Positions 1,818 to 41,158 of a stretch of 41,364 nt of DNA are shown piece after piece. Each line of letters opens with the position of its first letter. Position 1 is the first letter of the stretch. The notes beneath the pieces are model-generated. The model worked only from the letters and a program-made list of their open reading frames with translations, did not search any database and had not been told where the DNA came from. The stretch is from contig CACZUX010000018.1 in NCBI GenBank assembly GCA_902784475.1, positions 1 through 41,364 of the forward strand. The letters are read 5' to 3'. Source of the DNA: an uncultured Bacteroidales bacterium. GTDB lineage: Bacteria > Bacteroidota > Bacteroidia > Bacteroidales > Bacteroidaceae. The translations under genes and the position numbers were made by a program.

Positions 1818-3185
1818 TTAATTCACTTTAGGCAGTTTGGACAGTGCTTCCTTGATGACATCGTCGCTGGGAATCACGTCGGACATCGTGCCGTCGTTGA
1901 ACTGCTTGTAAGCGTAGAGGTCGAAGTAGCCCGTGCCTGAGAGATTGAAAACGATGACTTTCTCTTCGCCGGTCTTCTTGCAAGCCAAAGCCTCGTCGAT
2001 GGCGGCACGTATGGCGTGGCTGGATTCCGGCGCCGGCAGAATGCCTTCGGCTTTGGCGAAAATCTCAGCGGCTTCAAATACCTGAGTCTGCTCGTATGCA
2101 CGTGCCTCAAAGAGTCCCTGATCGTAGAGCTCGCTGAGAATCGGACTCATGCCGTGGAAACGCAGACCGCCGGCGTGGTTGCTGCTGGGAATGAACTGAC
2201 TGCCTACGGTGTACATCTTGGCCAGCGGACAAATCATGCCCGTGTCGCAGAAGTCGTAAGCATAGATGCCGCGTGTGAAGCTGGGACACGATGCGGGCTC
2301 TGCGCCAATCACCTTATACTGAGCCTCTCCGCGCAGCATTTCGCCGAGGAACGGACTGGCGAAACCGCCCAGGTTCGAACCGCCGCCCGTGCAGCCGATC
2401 AAGACGTCGGGCTTGATGCCGTATTTCTTCAGCGCAGCCTGTGCCTCAAGACCTATAATTGTCTGATGCAGAAGCACTTGATTGAGTACTGAACCCAATA
2501 CGTAACGATAGCCCTCGCTGCTGACGGCCACTTCGACGGCTTCGCTGATGGCGCAGCCCAGAGAGCCCGTCGTGTCGGGATGTTCGGCCAGAATCTTGCG
2601 GCCGACGTTGGTGGTGTCGCTGGGCGAAGGCACGATGCTGCCGCCATAGGTGCGAATCACCTCGCGGCGGAAGGGCTTCTGCTCGTAGGAGCACTTCACC
2701 ATAAACACCTTGCAGTCGAGGCCGAAATACTGGCAGGCCATCGAGAGAGCTGTGCCCCACTGCCCTGCCCCGGTCTCTGTGGTGACACCATTAAGGCCCT
2801 GTGCTTTAGCGTAGTAAGCCTGTGCAATGGCGCTGTTAAGCTTGTGGGAGCCGGAGGTGTTGTTGCCTTCGAACTTGTAGAATATCTTGGCCGGAGTGCC
2901 GAGGGCTTTCTCCAGAAACTCTGCGTGCACCAGAGGACTCGGACGGAACATGCGGTAGAAGTTCATCACGGGCTCGGGAATCTCCACCCACTTGGTGTCG
3001 TTGTCGAGCTCCTGCTTGATGAGTTCGGTGCAGAAGATGGGCTGCATCTCTTCCAGCGTGAGAGGCTTGCCCGTGCCGGGATTCAGGAGCGGCGCAGGTT
3101 TCTGCTTCATATCGGCACGCACGTTGTACCACTTGGTCGGCATCTCATCTTCCGTGAGATAAATCTTGTAAGGAATCTTGCTCAT
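1818..3185 (-). CDS. trpB: Tryptophan synthase beta-like protein, TrpB2 type
   Basis: A 455-aa fold-type II PLP enzyme of the long TrpB2 class, which joins indole and serine to make tryptophan. The PLP-binding lysine is K115 in NNTSGSHKLNSA, and the phosphate-binding loop GGGSN lies at 267-271. The N-terminal extension before the core and the length over 430 aa separate TrpB2 from the shorter TrpB1. No trpA or other trp gene is beside it; it sits between guaA (71-nt gap) and an acyl-CoA synthetase. TrpB2 proteins are known to act without a TrpA partner, perhaps salvaging indole, which would suit this position. Function in this organism is inferred. Confidence 0.92.
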   Translation of the reverse strand: MSKIPYKIYLTEDEMPTKWYNVRADMKQKPAPLLNPGTGKPLTLEEMQPIFCTELIKQELDNDTKWVEIPEPVMNFYRMFRPSPLVHAEFLEKALGTPAKIFYKFEGNNTSGSHKLNSAIAQAYYAKAQGLNGVTTETGAGQWGTALSMACQYFGLDCKVFMVKCSYEQKPFRREVIRTYGGSIVPSPSDTTNVGRKILAEHPDTTGSLGCAISEAVEVAVSSEGYRYVLGSVLNQVLLHQTIIGLEAQAALKKYGIKPDVLIGCTGGGSNLGGFASPFLGEMLRGEAQYKVIGAEPASCPSFTRGIYAYDFCDTGMICPLAKMYTVGSQFIPSSNHAGGLRFHGMSPILSELYDQGLFEARAYEQTQVFEAAEIFAKAEGILPAPESSHAIRAAIDEALACKKTGEEKVIVFNLSGTGYFDLYAYKQFNDGTMSDVIPSDDVIKEALSKLPKVN

Positions 3186-8196: not shown

Positions 8197-9087
8197 TTAT
8201 TCGATGCCGCTGACGGTGACGTCCTTGGCGATCTTCACGATCATGCCCTGAAGGGCACGGCCGGGACCGCATTCGGTGAACTCCGTAGCGCCTGCAGCCA
8301 CCATAGCCTGCACCTCCTTGGTCCAGAGCACGGGAGAAGTGAGCTGTGCGACGAGGTTCTGCTTGATGTCCTCGGGCTCGGTGTGGGCCTGACCGTCGAC
8401 GTTCTGATAGACGGGGCAGACGGGCTTGTGGAACTCGGTGGCCTTGATGGCGGCTTCGAGCTCGTCCTTGGCGTTCTGCATCAGGGGCGAATGGAAGGCA
8501 CCGCCCACGGGCAGCATGATGGCCCTCTTGGCGCCGGCTTCCTTAATCACCTCGCAGGCGCGCTCCACAGCCTCGCGGTTGCCGGAGATGACCAGCTGGC
8601 CGGGATTGTTGTAGTTGGCGGCAATCACGACGCCCTTGCCTTCGGCCGTAACGGCGGCGCAATGCTTCTCCACCTCCTCGTCGGCCATGCCGATGATGGC
8701 GGCCATCGCACCGGGATTGGCCTCGCAGCACTTCTGCATGGCCATAGCACGGGCGCTGACGAGCTTCAGACCGTCGGCAAACGTGAGGGCGCCGGCAGCC
8801 GTCAGAGCGGAGAATTCACCCAGAGAGTGACCGCCCACCATGTCGGGCTTGAACTCGTCGCCCAGACACACGGCCTTGATGACGCTGTCGAGGAAGACGG
8901 CGGGCTGCGTCACCTTCGTCTGGCGCAGATCCTCGGCCGTGCCTTCGAACATCAGATCGGTGATGCGGAAGCCGAGAATCTCGTTGGCCTGCTCGAAAAG
9001 CTCCTTGGCCTTGGGGTTGTTTTCATAAAGTGCTTTACCCATACCGGGGGTCTGTGCACCCTGTCCGGGAAATACAAATGCTTTCAT
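8197..9087 (-). CDS. fabD: Malonyl-CoA:ACP transacylase
   Basis: A 296-aa enzyme that moves malonyl from CoA to acyl carrier protein for fatty acid synthesis. The N-terminal FPGQGAQ (6-12), the nucleophile elbow GHSLG with S88, and catalytic H199 in GGAFHSP are all present. It is the first gene of the long leftward unit, with a Bacteroidetes -7 box (TACCTTTG) at 9172-9179. The start ATG at 9087 directly begins the conserved MKAFVFPGQG. Complete and canonical. Confidence 0.97.
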   Translation of the reverse strand: MKAFVFPGQGAQTPGMGKALYENNPKAKELFEQANEILGFRITDLMFEGTAEDLRQTKVTQPAVFLDSVIKAVCLGDEFKPDMVGGHSLGEFSALTAAGALTFADGLKLVSARAMAMQKCCEANPGAMAAIIGMADEEVEKHCAAVTAEGKGVVIAANYNNPGQLVISGNREAVERACEVIKEAGAKRAIMLPVGGAFHSPLMQNAKDELEAAIKATEFHKPVCPVYQNVDGQAHTEPEDIKQNLVAQLTSPVLWTKEVQAMVAAGATEFTECGPGRALQGMIVKIAKDVTVSGIE

Positions 9088-9171
9088 TGTCAGTTATCTT
9101 TTAGAGGTTTATGCGGGAATCCCGAAGAATTTTCCCCGCAACATTTATGTTGAATATGCAAATAACGCGTA

Positions 9172-9179
9172 CAAAGGTA
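9172..9179 (-). promoter_or_regulatory. fabD operon promoter, -7 box TACCTTTG
   Basis: TACCTTTG on the minus strand matches the Bacteroidetes -7 consensus TAnnTTTG and lies 84 nt upstream of the fabD ATG. No clear TTTG -33 element is seen at the expected distance. Confidence 0.7.
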
Positions 9180-9324
9180 CGAAAAAAAAATGAGATTTCC
9201 GCCTTTTCTTCCCACTTTTTCCAAAAATATTTTTTTCGGCCCTCCCCTCTCCCGTTTTTCAGACATCCGTCAGACGCTTCCCCAACCTCTCTTTTCTTTT
9301 GACAAAAAATACCCAAAACAGCGC

Positions 9325-9390
9325 CTCTGCTCGGTCTCTGCTCGGTCTCTGAGAAGCCTCTGAGAACAGTCTGAGAAGGGTCTTTGAAGA
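9325..9390 (+). repeat. 11-bp period direct-repeat array A (6 units)
   Basis: Six consecutive 11-bp units start at 9325, 9336, 9347, 9358, 9369 and 9380. Units 1-4 begin CTCTG and units 5-6 begin GTCT; the best-kept units read CTCTGAGAAnn or GTCTGAGAAnn. The array is preceded by AAAACAGCG, which is also found before array B. It lies 146 bp from the fabD -7 box and about 140 bp from the RSH -33 element. No known repeat family is recognised. Confidence 0.85.
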
Positions 9391-9531
9391 GGAGAAAAAT
9401 GTACTTTGTGCCCCCAATGCTATGTTTTACTCTTTTCCAAAAAGGGTTATTTCCAGCCAATCAGAAATCCGATTTTTTGACAAAAACAGGAGTAATTGGG
9501 CACAAGAATTAAAAAAAATCTGCAAAACATC

Positions 9532-9562
9532 TTTGATGTTTGCAAAAAAATCCGTATATTTG
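9532..9562 (+). promoter_or_regulatory. RSH gene promoter (TTTG / TATATTTG)
   Basis: TTTG at 9532-9535 and TATATTTG at 9555-9562 are separated by 19 bp, fitting Bacteroidetes -33/-7 elements. The start codon at 9585 follows the -7 box by only 22 nt, so the mRNA leader should be very short. Confidence 0.8.
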
Positions 9563-9584
9563 CCGCGAAAAACTGTATTTGTAA

Positions 9585-11447
9585 ATGTACGACTACAATC
9601 TGATCATCCGCCAATCGTCCGAACGCGTGTTCGAAGTGATGGCCCCAAGAGTGAGCCCCGAGGACCTTGAGCGCATCAAGGACGCCTTCGCTCTGGCTCA
9701 GGAGAAGCATGCCGCGCAGAAGCGCAAGAGCGGCGAGCCCTACATCATTCACCCCATCGCGGTGGCGCTCATCGCGGCCGAGGAACTCAAGCTCGACGCC
9801 AACTCCGTCATCACGGCCTTTCTGCACGATGTGGTGGAGGACACCGATTTCACCATCGAGCAGGTGCGCGAGCGCTTCGGCGACGACGTGGCTTCGCTCG
9901 TGGACATCGTGACGAAGAAGAAGAAGGACCAGTACAACATCACCAAGCAGGGCGACAACTACAAGCAGCTGCTCGACTCGCTCCACTACGACATCCGGGC
10001 CCTGATGATCAAGCTCTCCGACCGTCTGCACAACATGCGCACCCTCTCGTCGATGAAGCCCGAGAAGCAGATGAAGATCGCCGGAGAAACAGACTACTTC
10101 TACGCCCCTTTGGCCAATCGTCTGGGCCTGTTCGACGTGAAGACGGAGCTGGAGAATCTCTCCTTCCAATACCGCTGCGAACTGGAATACGCCGATCTGG
10201 AAGAAGCGCTCTATCAGGACAAACTGGCCAACTTCCGCCGCCTGGAGGAGTTCACCCACAAGTGCGAGCGTCTGCTCAAGGACAAAGGCATCGTGGCCAA
10301 GGTGGAAGTGTTCTACCGCAAGCCCTACTCCATCTACCGCCGCATGAAGCAGCAGGGCGTGGATTTCAAGCACTTGGACAACCGCTACTACGTGCGCGTC
10401 ACATTCGACGACGGTGTGGACGACATGATGACCGACAAGGCGCAGGCCCTGCGCATCTACAACATCCTCACGGACTACTTCAAGGAGAAGCCCGGCTCGT
10501 TCATGAACCTCATTGATCAGGCCAAGGAAAACTCCTACCAGTGTCTGCGCGTGATGCTGCTCTCGAAGGAGGGCGTCTGGGAAGACGTGCAGATCTGCAG
10601 CGACGACATGGTGGCAGCCTCGAAGATCGGCTGTATGGCCGAACTGGGCAACAACATCGGCGACTGGATCAAGCGCTTCCGCCGCGTGCTTCAGGATATC
10701 GCCGAACAAGGCACCGGCGCACAGTTGCTGGAGCAGATTTCGGCCGCACTCTACTACGACGACATCATGGTGTTCTCCACCGACGGCAAGAGCTTCATCC
10801 TGCCCCTGGGGAGCACGGCCATCGACTTCGCCTTCAAGCAGGACGAAGAGACCGGCCTGCACGCCCATTACGCCCGCATCAACGGCAAACTCAAGAGCGT
10901 GAAGACGCCGCTGCAGCGCGGCGACTGCGTCGAGATCGGCACCGCCGGAAAATACACCGCCGCCAAAGACTGGCTCGACCACTGCAGCACCTATTTTGCC
11001 AAGAGCCGCATCCGCAAGTATCTCTCCACGGTGGAGGATCCGATGGTGATGCGCTGTCCCCTGTGCCGTCCGCTTCCGGGCGGAGAGAGCATCGGCGTCA
11101 AGGACGACGACGGCCGTGTCACGATTCACCGCCGCAGTTGTGCGGAAGCCATTCGTTTGGCCTCCAAATACGGCGACAGCATCGTGGCGGTGGACTTCAA
11201 GGAGTCCAAGAAGATTTATCCCGTCACGGTGGTGATTCACGCCATCGACCGCGATCATCTGCTGGCGGATCTCATCGACCACATCACCAACGTGCTCCAT
11301 CTGGGCATCGACGCCCTCACAACGACGACGACCGATGCGCTGGTCGACTGCCACATCACCTTCTTCGTCCACTCCGTGAGCGAACTCGTGCGTGTGATGC
11401 GCCATCTCTACCAGATAGAGGGTGTGGACGAAGTCTATCACATCTGA
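9585..11447 (+). CDS. RelA/SpoT homologue: (p)ppGpp hydrolase with degenerate synthetase
   Basis: A 620-aa long RSH protein, shorter than typical Rel (about 730 aa). The HD hydrolase domain looks intact: H56 (HPIAVA), H81-D82 and E85-D86 (HDVVEDT), and D146 in KLSDRLHNMR. The synthetase domain (about 230-370) is eroded. The usual YDxxAVR appears as DNRYYVR, placing N266 where the catalytic Asp belongs; YQSLHT reads YQCLRV; VEVQIRT reads EDVQICS. TGS (about 390-455), a Cys/His segment with CPLC (491-494) and a C-terminal ACT domain (about 545-620) follow. I infer a hydrolase-dominant alarmone enzyme, with a second RSH elsewhere supplying synthesis. GH127 follows after 45 nt. Confidence 0.93.
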   Translation: MYDYNLIIRQSSERVFEVMAPRVSPEDLERIKDAFALAQEKHAAQKRKSGEPYIIHPIAVALIAAEELKLDANSVITAFLHDVVEDTDFTIEQVRERFGDDVASLVDIVTKKKKDQYNITKQGDNYKQLLDSLHYDIRALMIKLSDRLHNMRTLSSMKPEKQMKIAGETDYFYAPLANRLGLFDVKTELENLSFQYRCELEYADLEEALYQDKLANFRRLEEFTHKCERLLKDKGIVAKVEVFYRKPYSIYRRMKQQGVDFKHLDNRYYVRVTFDDGVDDMMTDKAQALRIYNILTDYFKEKPGSFMNLIDQAKENSYQCLRVMLLSKEGVWEDVQICSDDMVAASKIGCMAELGNNIGDWIKRFRRVLQDIAEQGTGAQLLEQISAALYYDDIMVFSTDGKSFILPLGSTAIDFAFKQDEETGLHAHYARINGKLKSVKTPLQRGDCVEIGTAGKYTAAKDWLDHCSTYFAKSRIRKYLSTVEDPMVMRCPLCRPLPGGESIGVKDDDGRVTIHRRSCAEAIRLASKYGDSIVAVDFKESKKIYPVTVVIHAIDRDHLLADLIDHITNVLHLGIDALTTTTTDALVDCHITFFVHSVSELVRVMRHLYQIEGVDEVYHI

Positions 11448-17283: not shown

Positions 17284-17338
17284 CTCTGCGTGGTCTCTGA
17301 GGGGAGTCTGAGGGGAGTCAAAAAAGGGTCTTTTGGAC
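17284..17338 (+). repeat. 11-bp period direct-repeat array B (5 units)
   Basis: Units start at 17284, 17295, 17306, 17317 and 17328. Units 1-2 begin CTCTG and units 3-5 begin GTC; units 2 and 3 read CTCTGAGGGGA and GTCTGAGGGGA. The preceding bases AAAACAGCG and the first unit match array A, with 24 of 26 positions identical from 17275. The array lies 144 bp upstream of the fcl -7 box. Confidence 0.82.
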
Positions 17339-41066: not shown

Positions 41067-41110
41067 CTCTGAGAACCCTCTGGGAACAGTCTGAGGATAG
41101 TCTGACGACC
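41067..41110 (+). repeat. 11-bp period direct-repeat array C (4 units)
   Basis: Units start at 41067, 41078, 41089 and 41100. Units 1-2 begin CTCTG and units 3-4 begin GTCTG, the same order as in arrays A and B. Units read CTCTGAGAACC, CTCTGGGAACA, GTCTGAGGATA and GTCTGACGACC. It lies 56 nt past the stop of the cysteine-rich gene. Confidence 0.8.
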
Positions 41111-41113
41111 TTC

Positions 41114-41158
41114 AACGGCCATAACGGACATAACGGACAAACGTTAATTGTGTCCGTT
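41114..41158. repeat. 9-bp direct repeats and hairpin next to array C
   Basis: AACGGCCAT, AACGGACAT and AACGGACAA stand in tandem (41114-41140). The last copy's AACGGACA (41132-41139) is inversely repeated as TGTCCGTT (41151-41158) around an 11-nt loop, giving an 8-bp stem. It lies 7 nt past the stop of the cysteine-rich gene and may act as its terminator, though the leftward T tract is missing. Confidence 0.6.

What the first reader, a model, noticed from the sequence alone, without database searches (positions are those of the whole stretch)
9315..9390. Array A: six head-to-tail 11-bp units between fabD and the RSH gene
Seen directly: an exact 11-bp period over 66 bp, with units drifting from CTCTGCTCGGT through CTCTGAGAAnn to GTCTGAGAAGG and ending GTCTTTGAAGA. 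Two more arrays with the same unit and polarity occur at 17284 and 41067. Eleven bp is about one helical turn, so each TCTGAG faces the same side of DNA. Known parallels: PhoB/OmpR-family and SARP regulators bind direct repeats with 11-bp spacing. Inference: these are multi-site binding arrays for an oligomerising protein, or an undescribed nucleoid or RNA-level element. I recognise no named family.
Basis: partly seen in the sequence, partly recalled or inferred. Interest (0 to 1): 0.75.

Follow-up and report, generated by a model that had tools for sequence, protein, structure and literature searches.

The report
Helix-locked mobile repeat with 11-bp array
The six 11-bp repeats are real and form the core of a small, scattered, non-coding DNA element of rumen bacteria whose two ends mostly sit a near-whole number of DNA helix turns apart, which suggests that the ends have to meet on the same face of the helix.

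Summary
In detail: six 11-bp units at 9325-9390, beyond chance, with two more arrays in the window and about 27 in the parts of this 2.1-Mb draft genome that I fetched. The reading as a stand-alone binding array is only partly supported. Array A is the inside of a dispersed ~189-bp non-coding element (9297-9485) with a TTTTGACAAAA box at each end. The box-to-box distance is 156, 167 or 178 bp, all 2 mod 11, in 26 of the 30 copies with both boxes. The four exceptions are off by 1 to 3 bp; five further copies have no right box in range. Interiors without detectable similarity follow the same rule. One copy stands at a gene boundary that lacks it in two relatives. I read it as a MITE-like element whose ends must be synapsed on one helix face, the array being a phase-preserving spacer and perhaps a binding site. 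The closest precedents are BrickBuilt of Porphyromonas gingivalis and the helically quantised lengths of Paramecium IESs. In sampled non-coding DNA of the genus, 20 of 60 tandem-repeat families have period 11 or 22 and 12 have period 7. No mobiliser or binding protein was found; function is untested.

The parts
9297..9485 (+). Whole type-1 element of array A (~189 bp): left box, array, interior, right box
   Evidence: Anatomy shared by 12 of the 13 copies found by their right end in this genome and by further copies in relatives; limits taken from the boxes, not from an empty site at this locus
9297..9310 (+). Left end TTTTGACAAAAAAT; palindromic box TTTTGWCAAAA; equals the reverse complement of the right end in 13 of 14 bases
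   Evidence: Sequence; left TTGACA at 9299 is 26 bp before the first unit, as in all 12 array-bearing copies
9325..9390 (+). Array A: six 11-bp units
9391..9471 (+). Interior of the element: no clear similarity to interiors of the 156-bp class, length on the 11-bp register
   Evidence: ungapped identity to 156-class copies 0.23-0.38, best shifted alignment 0.28-0.38
9472..9485 (+). Right end ATTTTTTGACAAAA; TTGACA at 9477, 178 bp from the left TTGACA (178 = 2 mod 11)
   Evidence: 13 copies of this end (up to 1 mismatch) in the genome against 0 for the reversed control
17284..17316 (+). Array B: three units (CTCTGCGTGGT, CTCTGAGGGGA, GTCTGAGGGGA), preceded by AAAACAGCGC as in array A but without a left box
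   Evidence: in the sister species (L206) 0 of 33 bases changed
41067..41110 (+). Array C: four units of the second flavour (type 2), followed by an AACGGACA...TGTCCGTT inverted repeat
   Evidence: about 150 bp of left flank shared with L076 and L066 by eye
8197..9087 (-). fabD (ACP S-malonyltransferase), leftward neighbour
   Evidence: TIGR00128 319 bits, above its cut-off of 261
9585..11447 (+). RelA/SpoT-family (RSH) gene, rightward neighbour
   Evidence: TIGR00691 389 bits, below its cut-off of 499

Best explanation
Array A is the internal 11-bp minisatellite of a dispersed, non-coding, MITE-like element of about 167, 178 or 189 bp. Shown: a box (TTTTGACAAAA or a variant) at each end, an array starting 26 bp after the left box, and lengths that differ between copies mostly in whole 11-bp steps. 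Shown: one copy is present in this genome and absent from the same gene boundary in two relatives. Inferred: the element moves or moved with the help of a protein supplied from elsewhere that binds the two boxes and must bring them together. DNA of this length is stiff in bending and twist, so only lengths near 15, 16 or 17 helical turns (156, 167, 178 bp at about 10.4-10.5 bp per turn) work. Slippage that adds or removes one 11-bp unit nearly keeps that phase and survives; most other indels break it. Inferred too, more weakly: the conserved part of the unit is read by a protein on one face of the helix.
For: Spacing rule: of 13 copies found by their right end in this genome, 12 lie at 156, 167 or 178 and the 13th (L129, 97 bp) has lost the array. 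Over all fetched loci, 30 of 35 copies have a right box within 90-260 bp and 26 of these 30 are 2 mod 11: 14 at 156, 4 at 167, 8 at 178. Interiors of the 156 and 178 classes show no clear similarity, yet their lengths are congruent. The ortholog of array A in G100 (L320) keeps 178 bp with interior identity 0.43. In L125 and L127 part of the array is overwritten by other bases with its 22-bp length kept. Presence/absence: at L072 homology to G100 stops at 2945 and resumes at 3129, the 183 bp between being the element; G084 and G100 have about 3.6 kb of other genes there and no array. Near-perfect 14-bp terminal inverted repeat in the window copy (sequence). Precedent for length quantised by end synapsis: Paramecium IESs (passages of PMC3408717).
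Against: Off register: L204 157, L238 159, L310 and L311 166. Among the five copies without a right box in range, L307 is a shortened copy whose right end lies too near, and L071 (same copy as L021) has a right-end-like TTTTTTGACAG at 201, which is 3 mod 11. Copies are related and orthologous pairs are counted, so the 26 are not independent. The script demanded a left box at 26, 37 or 48 bp before a unit, so the offset is not an independent result there. The type-1a left end (AAAACTTGACATCC) is not a clear inverted copy of the right end. I saw no target-site duplication by eye and found no autonomous partner; no transposase search was run. In G001 four right-end-like matches (one mismatch each) carry no such array. 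At fabD-RSH the element is old and stably inherited. The L072 site changed with a rearrangement, not by a clean insertion. Eleven is not 10.5, so phase drifts by half a base per unit. No binding, transcription or movement was measured.
Confidence: 0.5

Rival explanations
1. Regulatory looping element: one protein binds the two palindromic TTTTGACAAAA boxes as dimers and loops the DNA between fabD and the RSH gene, the array holding a partner or nucleoid protein. Dispersal is old and the element is kept for regulation.
For: The boxes are palindromic and helically phased. The element is kept between fabD and RSH in G084 and G100 in the same orientation, and an array with the same 26-bp offset from a left box sits there on the other strand in L310 and L311, whose RSH is 86% identical. 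Array positions change less than non-coding flanks between sister species: 26 of 492 against 343 of 3630 over 12 pairs.
Against: Copies lie in convergent gaps too (6 of 31 places). Without two poor alignments and one coding case the contrast is 19 of 385 against 218 of 2999, which is weak. No shared regulon was shown.
Confidence: 0.22
2. Neutral minisatellite: tandem slippage in non-coding DNA happens to favour 11-bp units, recombination spreads them, and the spacing rule reflects common descent with few indels.
For: Unit number differs between copies in whole units. Many unrelated 11- and 22-bp arrays exist in the genus.
Against: Indels between sister species show no peak at 11: of 52 indels in 49,967 aligned columns, lengths 7, 11 and 22 have 2, 1 and 1, and the 11-bp one looks like part of a 13-bp duplication (small numbers). 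Dissimilar interiors still share the register. Unit number is unchanged in 10 of 12 sister pairs.
Confidence: 0.18
3. Array bound by an oligomerising ribbon-helix-helix or OmpR-type protein, with the surrounding element incidental.
For: 11-bp spacing; between sister species unit positions 6-8 take 17 changes and positions 9-11 take 4, in 45 units. ParR of plasmid R1 needs at least two 11-bp repeats (passage of PMC9426499).
Against: Arrays of other sequence with the same period occur in the same genome, and array A comes with fixed ends. The TCTG core was part of the search pattern, so its constancy proves little.
Confidence: 0.1

Closest known systems
BrickBuilt MITE of Porphyromonas gingivalis (PMC4596501; abstract and section 5 read)
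   Same: Dispersed non-coding element of Bacteroidales with an internal tandem array between leader and tail, small inverted-repeat ends, 19 copies in one strain, intergenic
   Different: Unit of 23 nt and 1 to 22.8 copies there; 11 bp and mostly 3 to 6 here. Different sequence. No length rule in the parts I read
Paramecium internal eliminated sequences (PMC3408717, passages read)
   Same: Short elements whose length distribution is periodic at one helical turn, explained by interaction of proteins bound at the two ends of short DNA
   Different: Eukaryotic, excised with a domesticated PiggyBac transposase; no 11-bp array mentioned in the passages
ParR-parC centromere of plasmid R1 (PMC9426499, passages read)
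   Same: Tandem 11-bp repeats bound by a repeat-reading protein
   Different: Plasmid locus; here dispersed copies inside an element
PhoB/OmpR and SARP operators (recalled, not looked up)
   Same: Direct repeats at 11-bp spacing
   Different: Sites at promoters; here not tied to promoters
TAACTGA heptamer arrays of Beggiatoaceae (PMC4679880, only the start of the abstract in a search listing)
   Same: Abundant intergenic short direct repeats
   Different: One 7-bp word; here many unrelated words share the periods 7, 11 and 22

Membership tests
MITE | Short, no coding capacity | tested here: met
   167-189 bp in all; lengths differ by 11, not a multiple of 3; interiors dissimilar between classes
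MITE | Multiple dispersed copies | tested here: met
   13 right ends in G000; BLAST with one copy matched 4 of 139 genus genomes, five scored places at most each; further copies
MITE | Terminal inverted repeats | tested here: inconclusive
   13 of 14 bases in the window copy; the type-1a left end does not match well. Outer inverted repeats align clearly only in L125 and L238, of 19 loci aligned out of 21 given
MITE | Target-site duplication | tested here: inconclusive
   None seen by eye in printed flanks; no systematic test
MITE | Autonomous partner with the same ends | tested here: inconclusive
   Right-end pattern matched in 10 of 139 genomes; 14 of those loci printed showed no partner by eye; no transposase search was run
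MITE | Presence/absence at orthologous sites | tested here: met
   L072 site lacks it in G084 and G100, with a rearrangement at the same place. One site; a second (L117) was ambiguous
BrickBuilt | 23-nt repeat unit | tested here: not met
   Unit is 11 bp
PhoB/OmpR or SARP operator | Fixed position at promoters | tested here: not met
   6 convergent, 7 divergent, 13 tandem, 2 inside genes, 3 at edges, of 31
ParR-parC centromere | Adjacent parM and parR | not tested
   Neighbours of array A are fabD and RSH; neighbours of most other arrays were not annotated

The most novel reading that the evidence does not exclude
In a whole genus of Bacteroidales, non-coding DNA is built on the pitch of the double helix: many sequence-unrelated intergenic repeats and small mobile elements keep their units and end-to-end lengths at one or two helical turns (11 or 22 bp), because these DNA segments must loop or synapse on one helix face. 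Array A is one instance. This would be a bacterial counterpart of the helically quantised Paramecium IESs.
Probability: 0.3. Interest if true: 0.85.

Novelty: new variant of a known kind. Interest (0 to 1): 0.62.

Why it matters
If right, the length of a natural bacterial element reports the twist of DNA inside cells and the geometry of an unseen protein complex, and it would explain why unrelated repeats in one genus share periods of 11 and 22 bp. It gives a direct, cheap test: box-to-box length against activity. It also warns that 11-bp repeats in Bacteroidales genomes need not be transcription-factor operators.

Tried and rejected
RNA element: Rfam at gathering thresholds gave only a tRNA in the window, and folds of five copies on both strands showed no common structure by eye (no covariation test). 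Put aside as the leading idea, not excluded.

Coding repeat: length steps of 11 and dissimilar interiors speak against a shared frame.

Promoter operator: the position table does not fit.

Active slippage hot spot: no unit gain or loss in 10 of 12 sister pairs; the other two (L073, L076) are poor alignments with 2 and 13 gap columns. Only 52 indels were available, so this is weak. An earlier count said unit number is identical in all pairs; one search corrects that.

Empty-site mapping: the L117 site was ambiguous, since G100 has a longer gap with a type-2 array there and in G084 and G105 only the right gene matched. Two further G084 copies led nowhere: their flanks are mosaics of other repeats. 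For L072, G105 has the two genes on different contigs.

Literature: none of the titles listed (0 papers; 5; 2; 0; 12 listed of 167) is about 11-bp arrays in Prevotella or Bacteroidetes; most of these papers were not opened. Searches gave the parallels. Passages of PMC4060949 say that repeats of 4-11-bp units are normally or weakly over-represented in prokaryotes, extremely so in a few archaea. I recall, but did not find or read, a 1994 study of DNA-length and twist effects on IS50 transposition; one search did not list it, and the passages seen in two Tn5 papers said nothing on it. The library holds open-licence papers only.

Limits of my own scripts: gene calls are home-made, and for G084 they failed (48,487 of 67,348 bp called non-coding), so the lag counts that include G084 are weak. 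The 'unbiased' genus sample includes the window itself; at lag 11 it counts the CTCTG family and a variant of it (L145) as two of the nine families. Families were defined within one lag, so a sequence can count at both 11 and 22.

Full report
What was checked. The six units at 9325-9390 are there as described. Within the gap between fabD and the RSH gene (9088-9584) the lag-11 match is far outside 1000 dinucleotide shuffles (42 of 55 against a maximum of 35 over lags 5-30). The window holds 11 matches of TCTGN7TCTG against 1.92 expected. The draft genome (G000, 2.10 Mb, 84 contigs, 81% complete) has 38 matches of the three-unit pattern against 5 for the reversed pattern. Chaining in the window and in stretches fetched around these places gave 28 arrays, of which one looks like chance. 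A tally over 25 arrays and 86 units (TCT demanded by the script, arrays found by TCTG) shows G at position 5 in 83, purine at 9 in 84, G or C at 10 in 84, and little information at 6-8 and 11.

Where the arrays occur. In the genus, 16 of 139 genomes have the strict pattern; 8 have nine or more matches, the other 8 have one; in all 168 matches against 23 for the reversed pattern (my sums). Outside the genus, 3 of 59 other genomes of the order have one match each, while the reversed control has 30 in one of them (G190) and 3 in another. In some genus-mates the unit differs but the period stays: CTCTGCTATTT in G070, CTCTGTTCCCG in G076, CTCTGTAAGTA in G012. In G070 the array is followed by the same unit inverted (L091). 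The genus name was not given to me. Contigs of G084, G012 and G100 have the lengths of named records (ONSH01000097.1, uncultured Prevotellaceae bacterium RUG598; JAEEZX010000070.1; CADAVI010000048.1), so I take them as those genomes; RUG stands for rumen by recall.

The element. Comparing flanks shows that array A lies in a dispersed repeat. Its right end is CCGAWWTTTTGACAAAA, 13 copies in G000 with up to one mismatch and none for the reversed control. Measured from the left TT[GT]ACA to the right TTGACA, 12 of the 13 copies are 156, 167 or 178 bp, all 2 mod 11; in these 12 the first unit starts 26 bp after the left box and the units share the register; the 13th, L129, has lost the array. A wider scan of all fetched loci, which demanded a left box at 26, 37 or 48 bp before a unit and collapsed identical copies, found 35 copies, orthologs included. 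Thirty have a right box 90-260 bp away: 14 at 156, 4 at 167, 8 at 178, and four off register, L204 (157), L238 (159), L310 and L311 (166). Five have none in range; of these L307 is shortened, and the copy of L071/L021 has a poor right end at 201. Lengths 156, 167 and 178 are 14.9, 15.9 and 17.0 turns at 10.5 bp.

Why this may be more than descent. Part of the rule is trivial: copies differ by array units of 11 bp. But the interior of array A and the interiors of the 156 class match no better in register (0.23-0.38) than shifted (0.28-0.38), and still obey the same residue. Over all 325 pairs of 26 copies mean identity in register is 0.44 against 0.26 shifted, because many copies are near relatives; of the 208 pairs under 0.5, 52 match better in register than at any shift. 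L320, the ortholog of array A in G100, differs from it at more than half of the compared interior (identity 0.43) and is again 178. In L125 and L127 part of the array is overwritten with the 22-bp length kept. The number of truly independent interiors is small, perhaps three or four, so this is suggestive and not proof.

History. Between sister species G000 and G084 ten of twelve array pairs align without gaps. Changes in arrays are 26 of 492 against 343 of 3630 in non-coding flanks; without the two poor alignments and one coding case, 19 of 385 against 218 of 2999 (my sums). Positions 6-8 take 17 changes and 9-11 take 4, in 45 units; positions 1-5 take 5 but were part of the search pattern. 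At the fabD-RSH gap the element is present in G084 and G100, and an array lies on the opposite strand in three species with RSH 86% identical (L310, L311, L312). In two of these three the 26-bp offset holds. The other ten upstream regions printed (L313-L319, L321, L322, L350) show no three-unit array (15 of 43 loci were examined), but by eye several have other genes there, so their lack says little. At L072 the element sits at a boundary where G084 and G100 have about 3.6 kb of other genes and no array.

The wider pattern. In non-coding DNA of five genus genomes (85,763 bp by my own gene calls, the window included), 60 families of tandem self-similarity were found over lags 4-60: 12 at lag 7, 9 at 11, 11 at 22, 5 at 24, 4 at 8, at most 3 elsewhere. 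On contigs chosen for their CTCTG arrays in four more genomes, with CTCTG hits removed, it was 41 families: 9 at 7, 5 at 8, 5 at 14, 4 at 11, 4 at 22, so the excess is weaker there. A Markov null on G000 gave 2 hits in 439,590 bp. In four genomes of other genera of the order (45,769 bp) there were 14 families, 1 at 11, 2 at 22, none at 7; two of these three are in G191, of the same family. The pattern is uneven: G015 shows 22 but not 11, and G064 shows mostly 23 and 24. Coding DNA shows mainly lags that are multiples of 3. Units are unrelated: GGCATACCCTT, CTCCCGTGTTT, CCTGCACAGCG. Several 22-bp families carry a species-specific palindrome, such as TTCATTAATGAA, TCACTCGAGTGA and CAGCGGCCGCTG; this was seen by eye, without a test for palindrome excess.

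Interpretation. I commit to a MITE-like element whose ends are synapsed on short DNA, so that length is locked to the helix, with the array as phase-preserving spacer and possible contact. The parallel is the 10-bp length periodicity of Paramecium IESs (passages of PMC3408717); the nearest bacterial relative in kind is BrickBuilt (PMC4596501, abstract and one section). The regulatory-loop rival explains the boxes and the fabD-RSH conservation as well, and a mixture is possible. Membership in MITEs is not claimed outright: target duplication and an autonomous partner are missing.

What stays open. No protein, transcript or movement was shown. The Bacteroides promoter consensus TAnnTTTG, by which I would place the RSH promoter at 9555-9562, is recalled.

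Noticed in passing
L139:93-171, L145:748-802; left flanks of L119, L122, L127 and L226: 22-bp tandem array of the palindrome TTCATTAATGAA, to the left of type-1a elements in three G000 copies and one G100 copy.
   Followed up: partly
G015 L170-L174, G099 L175-L176, G064 L184, G076 L168: Species-specific 22-bp arrays of short palindromes or inverted repeats in genus-mates.
   Followed up: partly
G000 stretches L130-L149: Second preferred period of 7 bp in non-coding DNA, with many unrelated heptamers.
   Followed up: partly
41132-41158: AACGGACA...TGTCCGTT inverted repeat soon after array C; similar AACGGACA stretches follow other type-2 arrays (L068, L074, L076).
   Followed up: no
L073 and L076 around 3000: Hairpin-like insert GCATTACGA...GTAATG after a type-2 array; in L073 it is followed by a GACTTTCAAATCCGGTGCAAAG stretch, seen also in L070 and L083, that resembles a leftward promoter.
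   Followed up: no
L310, L311, L312 upstream of RSH: Array at the same fabD-RSH place but on the opposite strand in more distant species: inversion or independent arrival.
   Followed up: partly
G190: The reversed control pattern has 15+15 matches in one genome of another family, possibly another repeat family.
   Followed up: no
L075:2981-3024: Array of the same unit inside a predicted gene, present in the sister species with 5 of 44 bases changed.
   Followed up: no
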